Source: a virus. From it: 20,126 bases of DNA. Below the pieces are notes generated by a model that was not told the DNA's origin, ran no database searches, and saw nothing but the letters and a program-made list of their open reading frames with translations. Location: positions 1 to 20,126 of the IMG/VR virus record IMGVR_UViG_3300009551_000133. One strand, 5' to 3'. Position numbers and translations under genes: made by a program. Positions 6,008-13,142 of the stretch are shown one piece after another (positions within the stretch are counted from its first letter, which is position 1; each line of letters begins with the position of its first letter).

Positions 6008-6385
6008 CTACTTCTCGCGGGTACAATGCCACTGTAATTCAGTGCCGCCTAAAAATTGCCCAGTCCAGACTCCGTCAAGCTGAGTATCATTTTTATTTAT
6101 TTGTGCCCGAATCTTATGAAGAGTAGCCGCCCCATATTGGTAATCTCTCTCCATGATAAACACAGAATCATTCTCTATAACTCCGATTGCAGTTGAAGAG
6201 TCTGGCATATACGGGCTTCCGTTTAGCCATCCCGTGCTACCTAAAATACTATCTCCATTTTGAGATATATTCCACGCCTTACCGTCGCTCCATGATCCAG
6301 AGAGATTATGCGAATAAGTTTGTGGTGCGCTTATTGGATTCGCCGCACATCCTGAAATCAGTAAAAGAACTATCAGATATTTCAT
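6008..6385 (-). CDS. Small lipoprotein of unknown function
   Basis: The product is 125 residues. It begins MKYLIVLLLISGCAANPIS: a short charged start, a hydrophobic run, then a lipobox I-S-G-C with the lipidated Cys at 13. Signal peptidase II processing and membrane anchoring are therefore expected. Ala at +2 would not retain it in the inner membrane under the enterobacterial rule. The mature part has a SGSWSDGKAWNISQNGDSILG-like beta-strand pattern and ends GVWTGQFLGGTELQWHCTRE, recalling small beta-barrel lipoproteins that share 'G.W.G.' strands; no family is assigned. A second Cys lies near the C-terminus. It is the last gene before the intrinsic terminator, at the end of the major-tail gene group. 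Phage lipoproteins of this size are often lysogenic-conversion or superinfection-exclusion factors, or lysis accessories; which applies here cannot be told. Confidence 0.78.
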   Translation of the reverse strand: MKYLIVLLLISGCAANPISAPQTYSHNLSGSWSDGKAWNISQNGDSILGSTGWLNGSPYMPDSSTAIGVIENDSVFIMERDYQYGAATLHKIRAQINKNDTQLDGVWTGQFLGGTELQWHCTREK

Positions 6386-6666: not shown

Positions 6667-7703
6667 TAGTTGTAACCAATTTTTCCTTTATAAACTTCCT
6701 CAACTGCTGAAGACTGACCTAAATCCATATATGTAGTGTCCGTGTATCCGCCCGGGTTTACTGGAACGTCGCCACTTAAAGTAACTTCAATCCATGAATC
6801 GCCCGGCTTTTCAGATAATCTATAATCGGGGATATTAGATACTACACCGTTAGTAAATTTGTAATCGTTGCCTGATTTATCAAATGCTTTTAGGACTGCG
6901 ACATCTTCACGGTAATCGGTCAAGAATGCTTTGGCTTGCAAATAATTCATATCAACAATTTGCACTTTCCCAGCGATTCTAATGCCCTGAACGAAGGAGC
7001 GATTTCTATTATCTGGCTTGCCTCCGTACGACTCCCATGTTATTTCTGAGTCCATCCCTACTTTACCAGGAGCGGCGGTAGTGATTGAATTTTGCACCGA
7101 GAAAGAATCAAAGATAGGGATTACTATACTTTGTCTATCGTAGGCTTCTGCTGTTAGCCCCAAAGTAGTACCGCCCGTATTTGCCGCCAGTGCGGCGGTC
7201 GAAGAACTGAAAAGAAAATCCAGTTCATCGGTAGAAAGTAATGAAGTAATGTAAGAGTTTAACGTTATAACGCAATTTGCATTTTTACCGTTAATAGTTC
7301 TTTTGATCTTCATACCTAAAGACGTTGTGCCCGTAGCTTGTGCGCCTAAAGCGGCTGCGTTGTTTATAAATGTAAACCATCCCATAGAGGTTGCGCCGCC
7401 GCCAATCGCTTTGAACTGCGCGTCAACGTATCCTCTTGCAAGTTGTACGTAGTTTGCCCAATAGAGCGGTTTAATTTGCTCCGTTGTATATGTTACTGTT
7501 GCCTCGTGCTGAAAAGCCTTATCCCTATTGGCAATATCTTTCCCTGTTATCGGTTTAATTTCCATAAGGCCCTCGTCGCGCAATCCGGGCGTTATCGCAT
7601 CGGAAGCATTGAATGCTAAATTTTGCGGAGTGAGTCTGATGTTATCAAACCTACTTCCGGGCTCATGCCCTATAACTACGCCCTGATGTCCTGTTTCTGC
7701 CAT
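6666..7703 (-). CDS. Major tail (tube) protein
   Basis: The product is 345 residues. It is assigned by position (after tail-completion and terminator genes, before chaperone and tape measure) and by composition: beta-rich, Gly/Thr/Asn-rich, no signal peptide, no Cys-rich or catalytic motif apart from one Cys. The C-terminal segment SEKPGDSWIEVTLSGDVPVN looks like a beta-sandwich closing domain. Unlike most genes here it has a good Shine-Dalgarno (GGAG, 8 bases upstream of the ATG), which fits the high expression needed for a tube subunit. Its start lies 28 bases inside the upstream glycosyltransferase gene. The protein is longer than many siphophage tube subunits, so an extra surface domain is possible. 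The exact family was not recognised from motifs. Confidence 0.7.
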   Translation of the reverse strand: MAETGHQGVVIGHEPGSRFDNIRLTPQNLAFNASDAITPGLRDEGLMEIKPITGKDIANRDKAFQHEATVTYTTEQIKPLYWANYVQLARGYVDAQFKAIGGGATSMGWFTFINNAAALGAQATGTTSLGMKIKRTINGKNANCVITLNSYITSLLSTDELDFLFSSSTAALAANTGGTTLGLTAEAYDRQSIVIPIFDSFSVQNSITTAAPGKVGMDSEITWESYGGKPDNRNRSFVQGIRIAGKVQIVDMNYLQAKAFLTDYREDVAVLKAFDKSGNDYKFTNGVVSNIPDYRLSEKPGDSWIEVTLSGDVPVNPGGYTDTTYMDLGQSSAVEEVYKGKIGYN

Positions 7704-8671
7704 TTTGTTTTCTCCAAAATATAATTAAATTTATCTTCTATGTCAACTCCTTCGTGCGTGAACTCGCATTTTATGACATCAAAACGCGACGCATTAAAAT
7801 CTTTGTATTGCTCTGCTGCGATATTCGGAGTGCTCCCGAATATACAGAGCGTCGGTACGCCTAAAGCTCTTGCAGTATTCATCGTACCGCTATCCGCACC
7901 TACTACCAATTTAGCCGAATAAATATATGCAAGAAATTCATCAAACGAATCGGCTAAAATTTTCTTCTTATCAAAATTCCTATTCTTAAAAAGTATAGAT
8001 AATTTCCTAAAGTATCGCATTACTTTTTTTACTGCAACGCGAATCCTATCCTTCTTATTATGCCTCGGCATTGGCTTTATTTCTCTATTGAAGAAATATA
8101 AGCACGACTGCCCAAACATTACTATCTTATTATTTTTCAATAACTCTTTGTAGAGTTTTTTCTGCTGTAAAATTCTTCTGTTCTTTGAAGCGGAATCCGG
8201 TGCGAATAGAATATATTCATCTCCGAAAACTCTTTGTGGCTTCAAAACTTCAACCCATGAAAAATCTCTCTTCGGCGTAGTCTCTATCAGTTCTGCGAAA
8301 TACTCTATCCTATTTGAATGGAATGCCGCCTTAACCCCTGAATATCCTACGCTCCATTGATCTAATTCATAAATAATGCCGAACTCATTTCTCAAATCAA
8401 AAACTTCGCGTTGCCCTTCAAAATTTTCACCTATAAAGCATTTGAATCTGTAAAAATGCTCTTCATCATCTTTAGGGTTTACCGAAGGATAAACTTTGCA
8501 TCCCAACGAAGTCCAGATTTTTCTTGTGAACGGCTTACAGAAAACAGTGATATCAAATCCTTCGGAAATCTTTTGGGCAATCGCTGGCATAGCAGAAATA
8601 TCATCCCCTATACCGTGTCCGGTAAAAGCGATTGCTATTTTCTTACTATCTCCATTTCCGATTATCTTCAT
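7676..8671 (-). CDS. Glycosyltransferase family 9 (heptosyltransferase-like)
   Basis: The product is 331 residues with two Rossmann-like halves of the GT-B fold. The N-terminal half has a FTGHGIGDDISAMPAI motif (residues ~16-31), matching the glycine-rich acceptor loop of ADP-heptose:LPS heptosyltransferases. The C-terminal half has YILFAPDSASKNR and LVVGADSGTMNTARALGVPT (~255-274), matching the D-S/T-G-x-x-H-x-A sugar-nucleotide motif, but with Asn 265 where His is usual. The start overlaps the tail-terminator gene stop as ATGA, and the end overlaps the major tail start by 28 bases, so it is locked into the structural operon. Such enzymes normally act at the cytoplasmic membrane on lipid-A core. 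Here it could modify host LPS (receptor masking) or glycosylate a virion protein; both are inference. The motif change might alter donor choice or reduce activity. Confidence 0.85.
   Translation of the reverse strand: MKIIGNGDSKKIAIAFTGHGIGDDISAMPAIAQKISEGFDITVFCKPFTRKIWTSLGCKVYPSVNPKDDEEHFYRFKCFIGENFEGQREVFDLRNEFGIIYELDQWSVGYSGVKAAFHSNRIEYFAELIETTPKRDFSWVEVLKPQRVFGDEYILFAPDSASKNRRILQQKKLYKELLKNNKIVMFGQSCLYFFNREIKPMPRHNKKDRIRVAVKKVMRYFRKLSILFKNRNFDKKKILADSFDEFLAYIYSAKLVVGADSGTMNTARALGVPTLCIFGSTPNIAAEQYKDFNASRFDVIKCEFTHEGVDIEDKFNYILEKTKWQKQDIRA
7711..7716 (-). promoter_or_regulatory. Strong Shine-Dalgarno of the major tail gene
   Basis: The minus strand reads TGGAGA, with GGAG ending 8 bases before ATG 7703. 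It is notable because most other starts in the window have no such site. It lies within the 3' coding end of the glycosyltransferase gene and supports 7703 as the start. Confidence 0.7.
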
Positions 8672-9267: not shown

Positions 9268-9696
9268 TTATTTCAAATTATCTAAGCCTCTCACTACCGC
9301 TTCTTCAATTAGGGGAATATCCATAGGAGAAATGCCTACAAACTCCCTTGCGTTCATATTCTCTGTACCGTCGTTAAGATACCCCGCTAAATCTTCGTTA
9401 TTATCATCGTACCTTAACTCATTTGTTGAAGTATCAAAATAACGTGATTGCTTTAATTCCCCTGTCACGGTTAGGTTTACAATGTCCGTTCGCAAACCCA
9501 TTCTTTTTCTCTCGTAAACCGTAGCTTTTTTATACCGCTTAAAAAACTCGCCTTTATAATTTCTTCCTATTGAAGTTTGCTCTAATTCCTGTTTTTGAAC
9601 TACTGTTGCCGCTATCTTTAGAGCTTTCTTTTCTGCGAAGTTCGTTAGCTTCTTTGAAATCTTCTCTATGTCCGATTTATTTACGACGAAGTTCAT
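9268..9696 (-). CDS. Tail completion / neck protein (HK97 gp10 or Mu gpG-like)
   Basis: The product is 142 residues. The N-terminal basic helix (IEKISKKLTNFAEKKALKIAATVV), a basic middle with a GRNYKGEFFKRYKKATVYERKR stretch, and a C-terminal NAREFVGISPMDIPLIEEAV segment match the phage virion-morphogenesis/tail-completion pattern, in which an 'R.F.G.S' turn precedes a last helix. It probably binds the neck end of the tail or the connector ring. It lies 31 bases after the YadA-like gene and directly precedes the tail terminator (TAAATG). Confidence 0.65.
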   Translation of the reverse strand: MNFVVNKSDIEKISKKLTNFAEKKALKIAATVVQKQELEQTSIGRNYKGEFFKRYKKATVYERKRMGLRTDIVNLTVTGELKQSRYFDTSTNELRYDDNNEDLAGYLNDGTENMNAREFVGISPMDIPLIEEAVVRGLDNLK

Positions 9697-9727: not shown

Positions 9728-11797
9728 TTAGTTCGCATCAACTTCGACACTCATAGTCCAATCGTTCAAATTGCCACCGCCGATATAAGCAACCGAAAGA
9801 AAATCCCCTGCCACGAATGTTACTGAGCTTATCGTATTGCTCGCGCTCTTTACTCCATTTGGGTAAATTGCGAACAATGCAGTAGCTATACCATTCTTAT
9901 AAATCATTATCGTGTCTGTGCCATCCGGCGAGCCCGACACAGAGTTTGCATATAAGTTTTTGATCGTACCTGAAAACGGAGCTATTGTGGCTACGATATT
10001 TGAATAGCTCCCAACAGTCGGATACGATGCACTTGGCGTTCCTGCATTAAGCGGAGCATATCTATTAAATGTGCCTACTGGGGCATTGACGCTCCACGTT
10101 GATTTAACCCCTGAAAAATTAGTAGCTGTTATCGTGCCGCCGCATGTAACATTACCATTCTTCGCAATTTGCAAGCAATCAAAAGTAGAGGCATTGCCAT
10201 CTTTGCCGCCGTTCGCAAATACTGCAAGTAGTCCTGTAGTAGTTGTGTTGCCGTTGCCGTAAAGAAATTCTCTTGCATTTCTCGCCGTCACTACTCCGCC
10301 GTTCCCTATCTCTGTAGTTGAATCAAAGGCGGATGTGCTTTGCCCTGTAATGCTCTGAATGCAAATATCATAATTTGCAGTGTTGTTGTATCCTGAAAAA
10401 GCACCGAGCGCGATGTTGTTCAATCCTTTCGTTCTCGCATTCATACCGAGGGCTGTTCCGTTACTTTTATCGGTTTCACTTGCATAGCCTACAGCCGTTG
10501 AATTTGCAGAGCCTAATTGATTTGAAGCATCAGCCCCAACCACTACATTCTGTCCGTGATTGCCGTCCTGACTTTGCGACGTGTCGAAATCCGTTGCAGA
10601 GTATCCCTGAGCAAGTGACGCAAAAGAACGAGCATCCGTGCTTGCACCCACAGCAGTAGCGAAATCGCCAGTAGCTTTTGCCCCCGGCGTTCCTGAGGCT
10701 TCAGGAGCACCAATAGCAACCGCACCTGTTCCCGCTAGTGATCTTGTTCCAAGTGCTATACCATTCCATCCTGCAACAGAGGAGTCACCCATTGCAAAAC
10801 CTTTTCCTCCTGCCGTTACCGAAGGAGGGAGAACGGGCAAACCTGTGTCGGTTGTAATCCAGTTCATTCTTCCTGAATAGGAAATGAAATTACCGTCGCT
10901 TGAGAAAAGGAAATTTCTTGTTAACGGGTTATCGTCCGTTCCTGAAATTCCCGCGTGAGATGAGGCAAAAATAATATCCCCGCCTAATCCTGCACCTGTT
11001 GAAATACCCCCTGCTATGGTTATGGAGCCGCCTGGCAAGTCGTTCCCCTGAGGAACACATCCAGTCCCATGTATCGTATAATTTGCAGGGGTTGATGCCG
11101 AGTGCATTCTATATCCATCCCCAAAAAATACATCATATATGCCATGTCCTTGTTTCCCGCAAATAAATAAATTACTCAATGTGTCTGGGTCATCCGCGCC
11201 TGAGCCTGAGCCTAAAGCTATTACCCAGTTCCACGACTGATTACTCGTGGTAACATTACCCGCATTATAGCCTATAATGGTATTATTGTCGCCATCATTA
11301 TTTCGGTTTAATGCCCTAAACCCAATTATAGTATTGTTAGATGCGCTCTGAGCATATTGCAAAGCATAGCATCCCACTACCGTATTTCTCGTCCCATCGG
11401 TATCCGATTGCAACGCATCCTCTCCTATTGCGATATTATTTCCACCGTGAATAATACCTAATCCAGCCTCAAATCCAAAAGCCGTATTCTCCTCACCATC
11501 CATTATATTTCTTAGCGCATGTATGCCAGATGACGTATTGAATCCGCTCGATAAGATATTGTTCCCGCCTCCAAGCGTAAAACTATTATTATTTGACGTG
11601 TCAACATAAACTACTCCGCCCCCTCCACCTGATGGGGTTTGCCAAGTTGTAGTAAGTGGACTCCCTGTCACGGTAAGAACTTTTGCCGAATCAGCGTGAG
11701 TATATTTCGGAACCCCGCCACGATTAACTGGTACGCGAGTTGTATCCGCACCATAAGCGAAGGAAGAAAAAAGCAAAAGAAAAAATAAAATTTTCAT
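9728..11797 (-). CDS. Exported YadA-head-like repeat protein, putative fibre/adhesin
   Basis: The product is 689 residues. MKILFFLLLFSSFAYGADTT looks like a Sec signal peptide, with likely cleavage around residues 16-17. Residues ~100-180 and ~335-475 contain about a dozen degenerate 14-residue-type repeats of the form N-x-A-x-G-x-x-A (NTAFGFEAG, NNIAIGEDAL, NTIIGYNAG, NGIALGTRSLA, STAVGYASE, NNIALGAFSG), as in the left-handed beta-roll of YadA-type trimeric adhesin heads. Residues ~540-562 have a fibre-like DCLQIAKNGNV...GTITATNFSG segment. Residues ~575-689 form a beta-sandwich-like end domain (GTIKNLYANSVSGSPDGTDT, IMIYKNGIATALF). There is no autotransporter membrane anchor. It follows the 83-aa gene directly (TAAATG). 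It may be a head or neck fibre, or a host-derived secreted adhesin carried as cargo; the signal peptide is odd for a cytoplasmically assembled virion. Confidence 0.8.
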   Translation of the reverse strand: MKILFFLLLFSSFAYGADTTRVPVNRGGVPKYTHADSAKVLTVTGSPLTTTWQTPSGGGGGVVYVDTSNNNSFTLGGGNNILSSGFNTSSGIHALRNIMDGEENTAFGFEAGLGIIHGGNNIAIGEDALQSDTDGTRNTVVGCYALQYAQSASNNTIIGFRALNRNNDGDNNTIIGYNAGNVTTSNQSWNWVIALGSGSGADDPDTLSNLFICGKQGHGIYDVFFGDGYRMHSASTPANYTIHGTGCVPQGNDLPGGSITIAGGISTGAGLGGDIIFASSHAGISGTDDNPLTRNFLFSSDGNFISYSGRMNWITTDTGLPVLPPSVTAGGKGFAMGDSSVAGWNGIALGTRSLAGTGAVAIGAPEASGTPGAKATGDFATAVGASTDARSFASLAQGYSATDFDTSQSQDGNHGQNVVVGADASNQLGSANSTAVGYASETDKSNGTALGMNARTKGLNNIALGAFSGYNNTANYDICIQSITGQSTSAFDSTTEIGNGGVVTARNAREFLYGNGNTTTTGLLAVFANGGKDGNASTFDCLQIAKNGNVTCGGTITATNFSGVKSTWSVNAPVGTFNRYAPLNAGTPSASYPTVGSYSNIVATIAPFSGTIKNLYANSVSGSPDGTDTIMIYKNGIATALFAIYPNGVKSASNTISSVTFVAGDFLSVAYIGGGNLNDWTMSVEVDAN

Positions 11798-12049
11798 TTA
11801 GTTCGGTATCCAATAGGAAATTAAAAGTGTAGCTGATGGGGCAGTATTCAATATAAGCGTGGAATTTGATAAATTAAATTCCGTTGGAGATATAAGCAGA
11901 GAATCCAATGCAACTACTGCCGTTCCGAGAACAGGGCACTCGTTATTCTTCAATGTGAATGTGACGTTATTCCCGTCTATAACTCCCGAAGGAACATAGA
12001 ACGGAACAAGCATTGCCGTTAATTCTCCATAACCCTGAATTTTACTCAT
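11798..12049 (-). CDS. Stand-alone phage beta-module protein
   Basis: The product is 83 residues. The segment VPSGVIDGNNVTFTLKN and the later strands TAVVALDSLLISPTEFNLSN and TLILNTAPSATLLISYWIP match a widespread virion/fibre module ('P.G..dG.NttFtL...', 'v.l.G.ll....dy', 'i.l..aP..g..l..sY'). Usually this module is one domain of a longer fibre; here it is nearly the whole protein. It lies 7 bases after the connector gene, and its stop abuts the start of the YadA-like gene, so it may be a partner or base of that fibre, or a small decoration protein. Function beyond virion association is not shown. Confidence 0.65.
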   Translation of the reverse strand: MSKIQGYGELTAMLVPFYVPSGVIDGNNVTFTLKNNECPVLGTAVVALDSLLISPTEFNLSNSTLILNTAPSATLLISYWIPN

Positions 12050-12056
12050 AAACTTT

Positions 12057-13142
12057 TTATCCTAAAATTACAACTTCGCTTCGTGTAAATCCGCGCTTCC
12101 AATCGTTCATTATTCCGCTTCCTGAAATATCAATATCAACTAAAGAAAGTCCGCGTGATTTGTCTCTCTCATATTCTTTTCGCCAGAACGAAATAGTCAA
12201 ATCCATATAATCCACGTTCGTTCTATCTTGATAGTTTGCCCTGTTCCTGAATAGTCCATCTTTTGCCATTGCTAAAATAGCGGCGGATGTTGCCATGTGT
12301 AAGAGTTCGGTTTCAGTCGGAGAGAGAATATAATTTATTGCATCCCCCGCCTGAAATAAATCCCACGTTACATCCGTCGTTCCAGTGTTGCGATTGATGT
12401 AAAGGTTTCTATTTTGCATATCTGCTAAACAGTCCCCATTCTTTGCTAACCCTGCGAATGTACCCGCTCCGCTTCCCGCATTTGAAGGAACTCCATAATT
12501 AAAACGGAGTAAAGGGATTTGCCCGTAAACTGCATACCCGGAAATATCAATGAACAAACCATCATAACTAAAGAAACCATACGTCGGATAACTCCAACTT
12601 CCGAAGCCACGATCTGCGAGTTCCAAATTACGTGAGAACTCACTTTGCGAAGCATCAACCTGACTTCTTTTGAACGCCAAAAAACTCTTTATAGCAGTTG
12701 GTATTTTCTGCTGAAAATAGTTTACTAAATCTTGACGAATCCAGTCTTTTGATAAATCAATTTTTGATTGTATCAAAATATCTAAATTCGCATTATAAAC
12801 TACGTTCGTTCCCGTCCCTGTTGTCGTTATGTCAACCGAGGTGCCGCCCTTAACTGTAGAAATCTTAAATGTCGTAGGGGACACCGATATAACATAATAA
12901 CTCGTATTAGCTGTCAAGGGACTTGGAAGCGCACCGCCCGTATTCTCAAATTTTAATAAGTCATTTACTAAAAAATTATGATTAACGGTAGTAGTGAAAA
13001 CATCGGTAGCAGTATCAACGGTATATCCTATTCTCACATTATCGCTTTTCGGATATTGAAAAGAGATTTCGGGACTGTTAAGTCTGTTCCTAACGTCCGC
13101 TACTGTTGTGAGTGTTTGCTGCGCCCATGTTTTCTGTGGCAT
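12057..13142 (-). CDS. Putative head-tail connector/adaptor with two inserted beta modules
   Basis: The product is 361 residues. The frame of the protein is an adaptor-like helical scaffold: TLTTVADVRNRLN near the N-terminus, ILIQSKIDLSKDWIRQDLVNYF at ~122-143, and a C-terminal helical part (ELLHMATSAAILAMAKDGLF, ~279-298; ISFWRKEYERDKSRG, ~317-331). Two segments look foreign to it. Residues ~40-118 (FTTTVNHNFLVNDLLKFENT, SYYVISVSPTTFKIST) are a beta module common in phage surface proteins. Residues ~213-265 (AGTFAGLAKNGDCLADMQNR, then NLYINRNTG..VTWDLF) resemble a short tag also seen on virion proteins. Position after the capsid genes supports a connector/adaptor role; the inserts might face outward from the neck. 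No Shine-Dalgarno is seen, and a strong hairpin lies just upstream of the start. Confidence 0.6.
   Translation of the reverse strand: MPQKTWAQQTLTTVADVRNRLNSPEISFQYPKSDNVRIGYTVDTATDVFTTTVNHNFLVNDLLKFENTGGALPSPLTANTSYYVISVSPTTFKISTVKGGTSVDITTTGTGTNVVYNANLDILIQSKIDLSKDWIRQDLVNYFQQKIPTAIKSFLAFKRSQVDASQSEFSRNLELADRGFGSWSYPTYGFFSYDGLFIDISGYAVYGQIPLLRFNYGVPSNAGSGAGTFAGLAKNGDCLADMQNRNLYINRNTGTTDVTWDLFQAGDAINYILSPTETELLHMATSAAILAMAKDGLFRNRANYQDRTNVDYMDLTISFWRKEYERDKSRGLSLVDIDISGSGIMNDWKRGFTRSEVVILG

What the first reader, a model, noticed from the sequence alone, without database searches (positions are those of the whole stretch)
9728..11797. Signal-peptide-bearing YadA-head-like protein inside the neck gene module
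The protein combines a Sec signal peptide, about a dozen NxAxGxxA beta-roll repeats and a beta-sandwich C-terminus, without any autotransporter anchor. Virion proteins are assembled in the cytoplasm and should not be exported. This could be a host surface adhesin captured into the phage, a secreted factor that coats the infected or lysogenic cell, or a fibre whose signal is inactive. The cassette (83-aa module plus this gene) interrupts the normal connector-to-neck order.
Basis: partly seen in the sequence, partly recalled or inferred. Interest (0 to 1): 0.65.

Follow-up and report, generated by a model that had tools for sequence, protein, structure and literature searches.

The report
Exported fibre-like protein among phage genes
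A phage carries, inside its capsid-and-neck gene cluster, a fibre-like beta-roll protein that starts with a cell-export signal; related phages of Bacteroidota bacteria repeatedly put such exported fibre-like proteins in the same part of the cluster, which suggests they work outside the cytoplasm and not as ordinary virion parts.

Summary
The gene at 9728-11797 (minus strand) encodes 689 aa with a textbook Sec signal peptide, two arrays of YadA-head-like beta-roll repeats (about 15 in all) and a C-terminus that probably forms a beta-sandwich. It has no YadA anchor, type IX sorting domain or S74 chaperone. With an 83-aa gene it splits a connector-neck1 pair that is adjacent in two related prophages. 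A third relative has a different signal-peptide protein in exactly this slot. More such genes sit between major capsid and neck, or at the tail end, of other prophages in the Bacteroidota phylum; one, in a Bacteroidia prophage, is again signal peptide plus beta-roll. By a blind rule, 11 of 16 signal peptides of this set have Gln at +1 (Bacteroidetes Q-rule); the window's own does not. None of 66 IMG/VR beta-roll proteins has a signal peptide; 48 of 62 cellular ones do. Gene spacing (7, 0, 31 nt) makes it part of the late operon, not a self-contained moron. Best explanation: a late-expressed, Sec-exported accessory fibre, held in the periplasm and released at lysis; its target is unknown. Exported proteins of Bacteroidota phages are partly known (Porphyromonas phages); this fibre type and slot appear new.

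The parts
9728..11797 (-). Signal-peptide-bearing YadA-head-like (left-handed beta-roll) fibre-like protein, 689 aa
   Evidence: ORF; PHROG matches to virion structural / tail spike proteins within residues 45-187, E 3e-17 to 1e-9
11750..11797 (-). Predicted Sec signal peptide MKILFFLLLFSSFAYG, cleavage near residue 16
   Evidence: Rule-based call; inspection of the sequence. The crude site rule put the cut two residues earlier
11633..11680 (-). Fibre-type linker motif VLTVTGSPLTTTWQTP (residues 40-55), followed by a poly-Gly hinge
   Evidence: Sequence; a similar VLTxxGxxxxxxW motif occurs in SP-bearing proteins of related prophages
11237..11539 (-). First beta-roll array, residues 87-187, 17-residue NTxxGxxAL-type repeats
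   Evidence: AlphaFold solenoid at pLDDT about 90
10388..10810 (-). Second repeat array, residues about 330-470, about 14-residue YadA-head-type repeats
   Evidence: Pfam YadA_head sub-threshold at residues 432-454
9731..10105 (-). C-terminal probable beta-sandwich (residues 565-689); no S74, YadA anchor or type IX sorting domain found
   Evidence: no homologue found
11798..12049 (-). 83-aa ORF, first gene of the cassette, abutting the fibre-like gene (0 nt gap)
   Evidence: no family match, no tblastn match in phages
12057..13142 (-). Connector-like protein (361 aa) upstream of the cassette
   Evidence: 32% identity to the corresponding gene of prophage G216, 34% over residues 2-131 to that of G455
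9268..9696 (-). Neck1 / tail-completion-like protein (142 aa) downstream of the cassette
   Evidence: phrog_5 E 5e-5, phrog_26 E 1.5e-4

Best explanation
It is a late-operon phage gene for a Sec-exported, fibre-like beta-roll protein. The protein is made together with capsid and neck proteins, its signal peptide sends it across the inner membrane, and, lacking any outer-membrane route, it stays in the periplasm until endolysin releases it together with the virions. Outside, it acts as an accessory fibre: most likely it binds host-surface glycans or receptor (masking debris and neighbouring cells from the progeny), or else it attaches to the released particles. Shown: sequence anatomy, operon position, recurrence of signal-peptide proteins at this slot in related prophages. 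Inferred: actual export, periplasmic retention, release at lysis, and the binding target.
For: Signal peptide and repeats. Spacing of 7 nt (connector to g83), 0 nt (g83 to this gene) and 31 nt (to neck1), with promoter- and terminator-like hits in the region no more frequent than in shuffles: co-transcription with structural genes. Prophage G455 has connector / SP-bearing 293-aa collagen-like protein / neck1 in the same order, with an unrelated mature part. Prophages G216 and G418 have connector and neck1 adjacent, so the slot is an insertion site. SP-bearing proteins between major capsid and connector in G216, G455, G506, G499 and G636. The G636 prophage carries an independent SP + beta-roll + fibre-motif protein that hits the same three PHROGs. 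11 of 16 predicted cleavage sites in this set have Gln at +1 against 6% background, as expected for processed Bacteroidetes signal peptidase I substrates (PMC5837995). None of 66 5'-complete viral beta-roll proteins has an SP; 48 of 62 cellular ones do.
Against: The window's own signal does not follow the Q-rule and no SignalP-class tool was run. Beta-roll relatives in phages are virion fibres without signals. The window's host is not identified; the link to Bacteroidota rests on distant prophages (25-34% identity) found in searches mostly confined to that phylum. No homologue or confident fold for the C-terminus. Enrichment in Bacteroidota modules depends on the counting: 13 of 32 against 1 of 19 in Alphaproteobacteria (p 0.008), but several of the 13 look like host genes beside portal remnants; with strict modules 6 of 15 against 1 of 7 (p 0.35).
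Confidence: 0.5

Rival explanations
1. It is a virion head or neck fibre made in the cytoplasm; the hydrophobic N-terminus is not used for export but tethers the protein or assembling proheads to the membrane, or is removed by the prohead protease.
For: Location among head/neck genes; the named beta-roll phage relatives are fibres or structural proteins. The major capsid protein of prophage G499 also has a hydrophobic N-terminal segment, and for Porphyromonas phages capsid signal peptides were proposed to be cleaved by the prohead protease (PMC10367356).
Against: The major capsid protein of this window has no such N-terminus. Related SP proteins have signal peptidase I cleavage sites with Q at +1, which a prohead protease would not require. 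Unrelated mature parts share only the signal.
Confidence: 0.22
2. It is a lysogenic-conversion gene (moron): a host-type surface adhesin captured by the phage and expressed by the lysogen to alter adhesion or exclude other phages.
For: SP plus beta-roll is common in cellular Bacteroidota-phylum proteins (48 of 62; up to 40 matching stretches in one genome). The same structural cluster also holds a probable lipoprotein and a glycosyltransferase.
Against: Gaps of 7, 0 and 31 nt leave no room for an own promoter or terminator. No outer-membrane anchor or type IX sorting domain. No close cellular relative found; the repeat similarity to viral and cellular proteins is about equal.
Confidence: 0.2
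3. The signal peptide is a chance or vestigial relic of recombination with a cellular signal-peptide fibre gene and has no function in the phage.
For: Cellular beta-roll proteins with signal peptides are abundant partners for recombination; the window's site lacks Q at +1.
Against: Recurrence of intact signal peptides in several prophages with different mature parts and Q-rule cleavage sites; a relic would be expected to decay.
Confidence: 0.08

Closest known systems
YadA head / trimeric autotransporter adhesins (Pfam PF05658 YadA_head)
   Same: Beta-roll repeats of the NxAxGxxA type behind a Sec signal peptide
   Different: No YadA anchor found; Pfam head match is below the gathering score
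Phage beta-roll tail fibres / virion structural proteins (phrog_6002, phrog_4636, phrog_23837; marine phage fibres such as Pelagibacter phage Kolga gp17)
   Same: First repeat array matches at E down to 3e-17, 34-42% identity in tblastn; fibre-type linker motif
   Different: Viral beta-roll proteins have no signal peptide (0 of 66) and many in that sample end in S74-like chaperone tails
Cellular Bacteroidota signal-peptide beta-roll proteins
   Same: Signal peptide plus beta-roll array (48 of 62)
   Different: This gene sits in a phage late operon, with a different C-terminus and no close relative
Signal-peptide, Q-rule genes of Porphyromonas gingivalis phages (PMC10367356)
   Same: Phage-encoded Sec substrates of unknown function adapted to Bacteroidota signal peptidase I
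   Different: The passage read describes genes of unknown function; here the genes are fibre-like and sit beside connector and neck. The window's own site lacks Q
Lambda Lom/Bor and T5 Llp (from general knowledge, not tested here)
   Same: Phage-encoded exported envelope proteins; Lom lies within the late tail region
   Different: Those are an outer-membrane barrel or lipoproteins, not fibre-like beta-rolls

Membership tests
Trimeric autotransporter adhesins (type Vc, YadA) | C-terminal YadA anchor barrel | tested here: not met
   Pfam scan at E <= 1 lists only YadA_head
Trimeric autotransporter adhesins (type Vc, YadA) | YadA-head beta-roll repeats | tested here: met
   Two arrays, about 15 repeats; solenoid at pLDDT about 90 for the first array; Pfam match sub-threshold
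Trimeric autotransporter adhesins (type Vc, YadA) | Trimer | not testable with these tools
   Only monomer prediction available
Sec/SPI-exported proteins | n-, h- and c-regions with a signal peptidase I motif | tested here: met
   Rule-based call; not confirmed by SignalP or experiment
Bacteroidetes Q-rule substrates | Gln at +1 after cleavage | tested here: not met
   Window has A or D after AYG; 11 of 16 in the tested set have Q
Type IX secretion cargo | C-terminal sorting domain | tested here: not met
   No NCBIfam or Pfam match at E <= 1
S74-type phage tail fibres | C-terminal S74 intramolecular chaperone | tested here: not met
   No Pfam match
Lysogenic-conversion moron | Own promoter and terminator, separable from the late operon | tested here: not met
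   Gaps of 7, 0 and 31 nt; promoter/terminator-like hits no more frequent than in shuffles
Virion protein of a tailed phage | Presence in the particle | not testable with these tools
   Needs virion proteomics

The most novel reading that the evidence does not exclude
Phages of the Bacteroidota phylum systematically encode Sec-exported fibre- or decoration-like proteins within their capsid-neck module; these mature in the periplasm and join or shield the virions only at lysis, a division of virion accessory assembly between cytoplasm and periplasm not described, to my knowledge, for tailed phages.
Probability: 0.25. Interest if true: 0.8.

Novelty: new variant of a known kind. Interest (0 to 1): 0.52.

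Why it matters
If the export is real, a group of tailed phages makes fibre-like proteins meant to work outside the cytoplasm, coded among the virion genes and probably expressed with them. That would give a testable answer to what signal-peptide genes of Bacteroidota phages do (receptor masking at lysis, or periplasmic maturation of virion accessories), and it warns annotators not to label every beta-roll gene in a structural module a tail fibre. The capsid-neck slot named here is a concrete place to look in other phages.

Tried and rejected
Close relatives of the protein: none in IMG/VR, the genome collection or plasmids; only weak beta-roll matches in nine phage records. Relatives by major capsid, terminase or connector in IMG/VR: none near; 80 loci by a terminase profile share essentially only terminase. 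C-terminal domain and g83: no tblastn match in phages up to E 5 and none in fetched loci. Fold search: the low-confidence C-terminal model gave nothing at E <= 0.001; the full-length model matched beta-helix proteins at Z about 6-8.6, treated as a common solenoid arrangement. Solved-structure sequence search: nothing. Q-rule as proof of export of the window protein itself: rejected, its +1 is not Gln. Claim that all Bacteroidota prophages have such genes: rejected, many modules have none (L336, L367, L368, L369, L259, L291). The first alphaproteobacterial control was spoiled by long antisense ORFs that cut modules short and was redone. Six isolate phages of Bacteroidota checked: several small SP or lipoprotein genes, no SP beta-roll. 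Literature searches gave nothing on signal-peptide tail fibres.

Full report
What is there. The window is an IMG/VR virus record (20,126 bp). Its main genes all lie on the minus strand: terminase, portal, protease, major capsid, a 150-aa ORF, a connector-like protein (361 aa), an 83-aa ORF, the 689-aa target, a neck1-like protein, a 199-aa ORF, a GT9-family glycosyltransferase, a probable tail-tube protein, a probable lipoprotein and the tape measure. The target starts with MKILFFLLLFSSFAYG/ADTT, a good Sec signal by rule, followed by a fibre-type motif (VLTVTGSPLTTTWQTP), a Gly hinge, a first array of 17-residue repeats (87-187), a middle region, a second array of about 14-residue repeats (about 330-470) and a C-terminal probable beta-sandwich. 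Repeats far exceed shuffles (17 against a mean of 3.8 and a maximum of 11 in 2000).

Relatives of the repeat region. Three PHROGs of virion structural and tail spike proteins match at E 3e-17 to 1e-9, and the nine phage tblastn hits lie in fibres or structural proteins. I fetched the 80 best beta-roll loci from IMG/VR and 79 from bacterial genomes. Of the viral ORFs with a complete 5' end (66 by my count of the listing) none has a signal peptide; of 62 cellular ones 48 do, most in Bacteroidota and related lineages. So signal peptide plus beta-roll is a cellular architecture in this sample, and the window protein is the exception among viruses.

Synteny with prophages. A portal search over 395 Bacteroidota-phylum genomes led to a prophage in G216 whose module is collinear with the window: terminase, portal, connector (32% identity), neck1-like, a 204-aa ORF in the place of the window's 199-aa one, GT9 (25%) and tail tube (26%). 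There connector and neck1 are adjacent; between major capsid and connector lies a 168-aa signal-peptide protein. Prophage fragment G455 has connector (34% over residues 2-131), then a 293-aa signal-peptide protein with a collagen-like stretch, then neck1 (phrog_26, E 1.5e-6): the same slot, an unrelated mature part; it also has a 158-aa signal-peptide protein before the connector. G418 has a 179-aa connector-like gene directly before neck1. rpoB places G216 and G455 together, apart from the Bacteroidia rows and as sister to the Ignavibacteria/Kapaibacterium rows; the searches put them in the class of an Ignavibacteria MAG.

How general. Portal-anchored modules from two classes of the phylum gave further signal-peptide genes: G509 (1502 and 120 aa), G506 (295 aa), G499 (152 aa beside the connector, 426 and 308 aa at the tail end) and, in a Bacteroidia genome, G636 (131 aa before the connector, 378 aa at the tail end). 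Capsid and connector identities were checked for G499 and G636, neck1 for G636. The 378-aa protein is signal peptide plus beta-roll plus fibre motif and hits the same three PHROGs as the window protein. Many modules have no such gene. Counts against other phages: 13 of 32 against 1 of 19 alphaproteobacterial modules (p 0.008), but several of the 13 are probably host genes next to portal remnants; strict modules 6 of 15 against 1 of 7 (p 0.35); against IMG/VR terminase modules 9 of 18 versus 3 of 19 (p 0.04). I treat enrichment as suggestive, recurrence at the slot as solid.

Is the signal real? A blind cleavage rule put Gln at +1 in 11 of 16 signal peptides of this set, against 5.8% in the residues that follow (binomial p 9e-11). 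Related proteins are not fully independent, and the set was gathered by me. Gln at +1 is the Bacteroidetes rule for signal peptidase I substrates (PMC5837995, PMC10653852), and Ignavibacterium album was reported at 77%. The window protein itself has Ala or Asp, so the argument reaches it only through its relatives. Porphyromonas phages were already reported to carry Q-rule signal-peptide genes of unknown function (PMC10367356).

Mechanism. Spacing of 7, 0 and 31 nt ties the gene to the late operon. Without an anchor or type IX domain a Sec-exported protein in a diderm should remain periplasmic until lysis. I therefore favour a lysis-released accessory fibre that binds host surface or, less likely, virions. 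Export, retention, release and target are inferred; nothing here tests them.

Limits. No SignalP, no trimer prediction, no virion proteomics, unknown host, C-terminus without homologues. The related prophages are distant, and the genome searches that found them were mostly restricted to the Bacteroidota phylum, so host assignment of the window is a lead only.

Noticed in passing
window 7676-8671 (-): A GT9-family (heptosyltransferase-like) gene overlaps the start of the tail-tube gene. It recurs in prophage G216 at the same place and in G418 upstream of the capsid gene; it may modify LPS or a virion or exported protein.
   Followed up: partly
window 6008-6385 (-): 125-aa probable lipoprotein (lipobox LISGC) between tail genes; a second exported product in the same cluster, possibly a superinfection-exclusion type gene.
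   Followed up: no
L371:11247-12503 (-): Family 2 glycosyltransferase directly before the 131-aa signal-peptide protein in a Bacteroidia prophage.
   Followed up: no
L360:13623-15017 (-): Major capsid protein (phrog_10) with a signal-peptide-like hydrophobic N-terminus in prophage G499.
   Followed up: no
L269:11045-13025 (-): Three consecutive signal-peptide genes near the endolysin of the G216 prophage, two of them fibre-like.
   Followed up: partly
window 12057-13142 (-): The connector-like protein contains an inserted domain (residues about 38-115) that is absent from the G216 homologue and matches phage fibre families.
   Followed up: no
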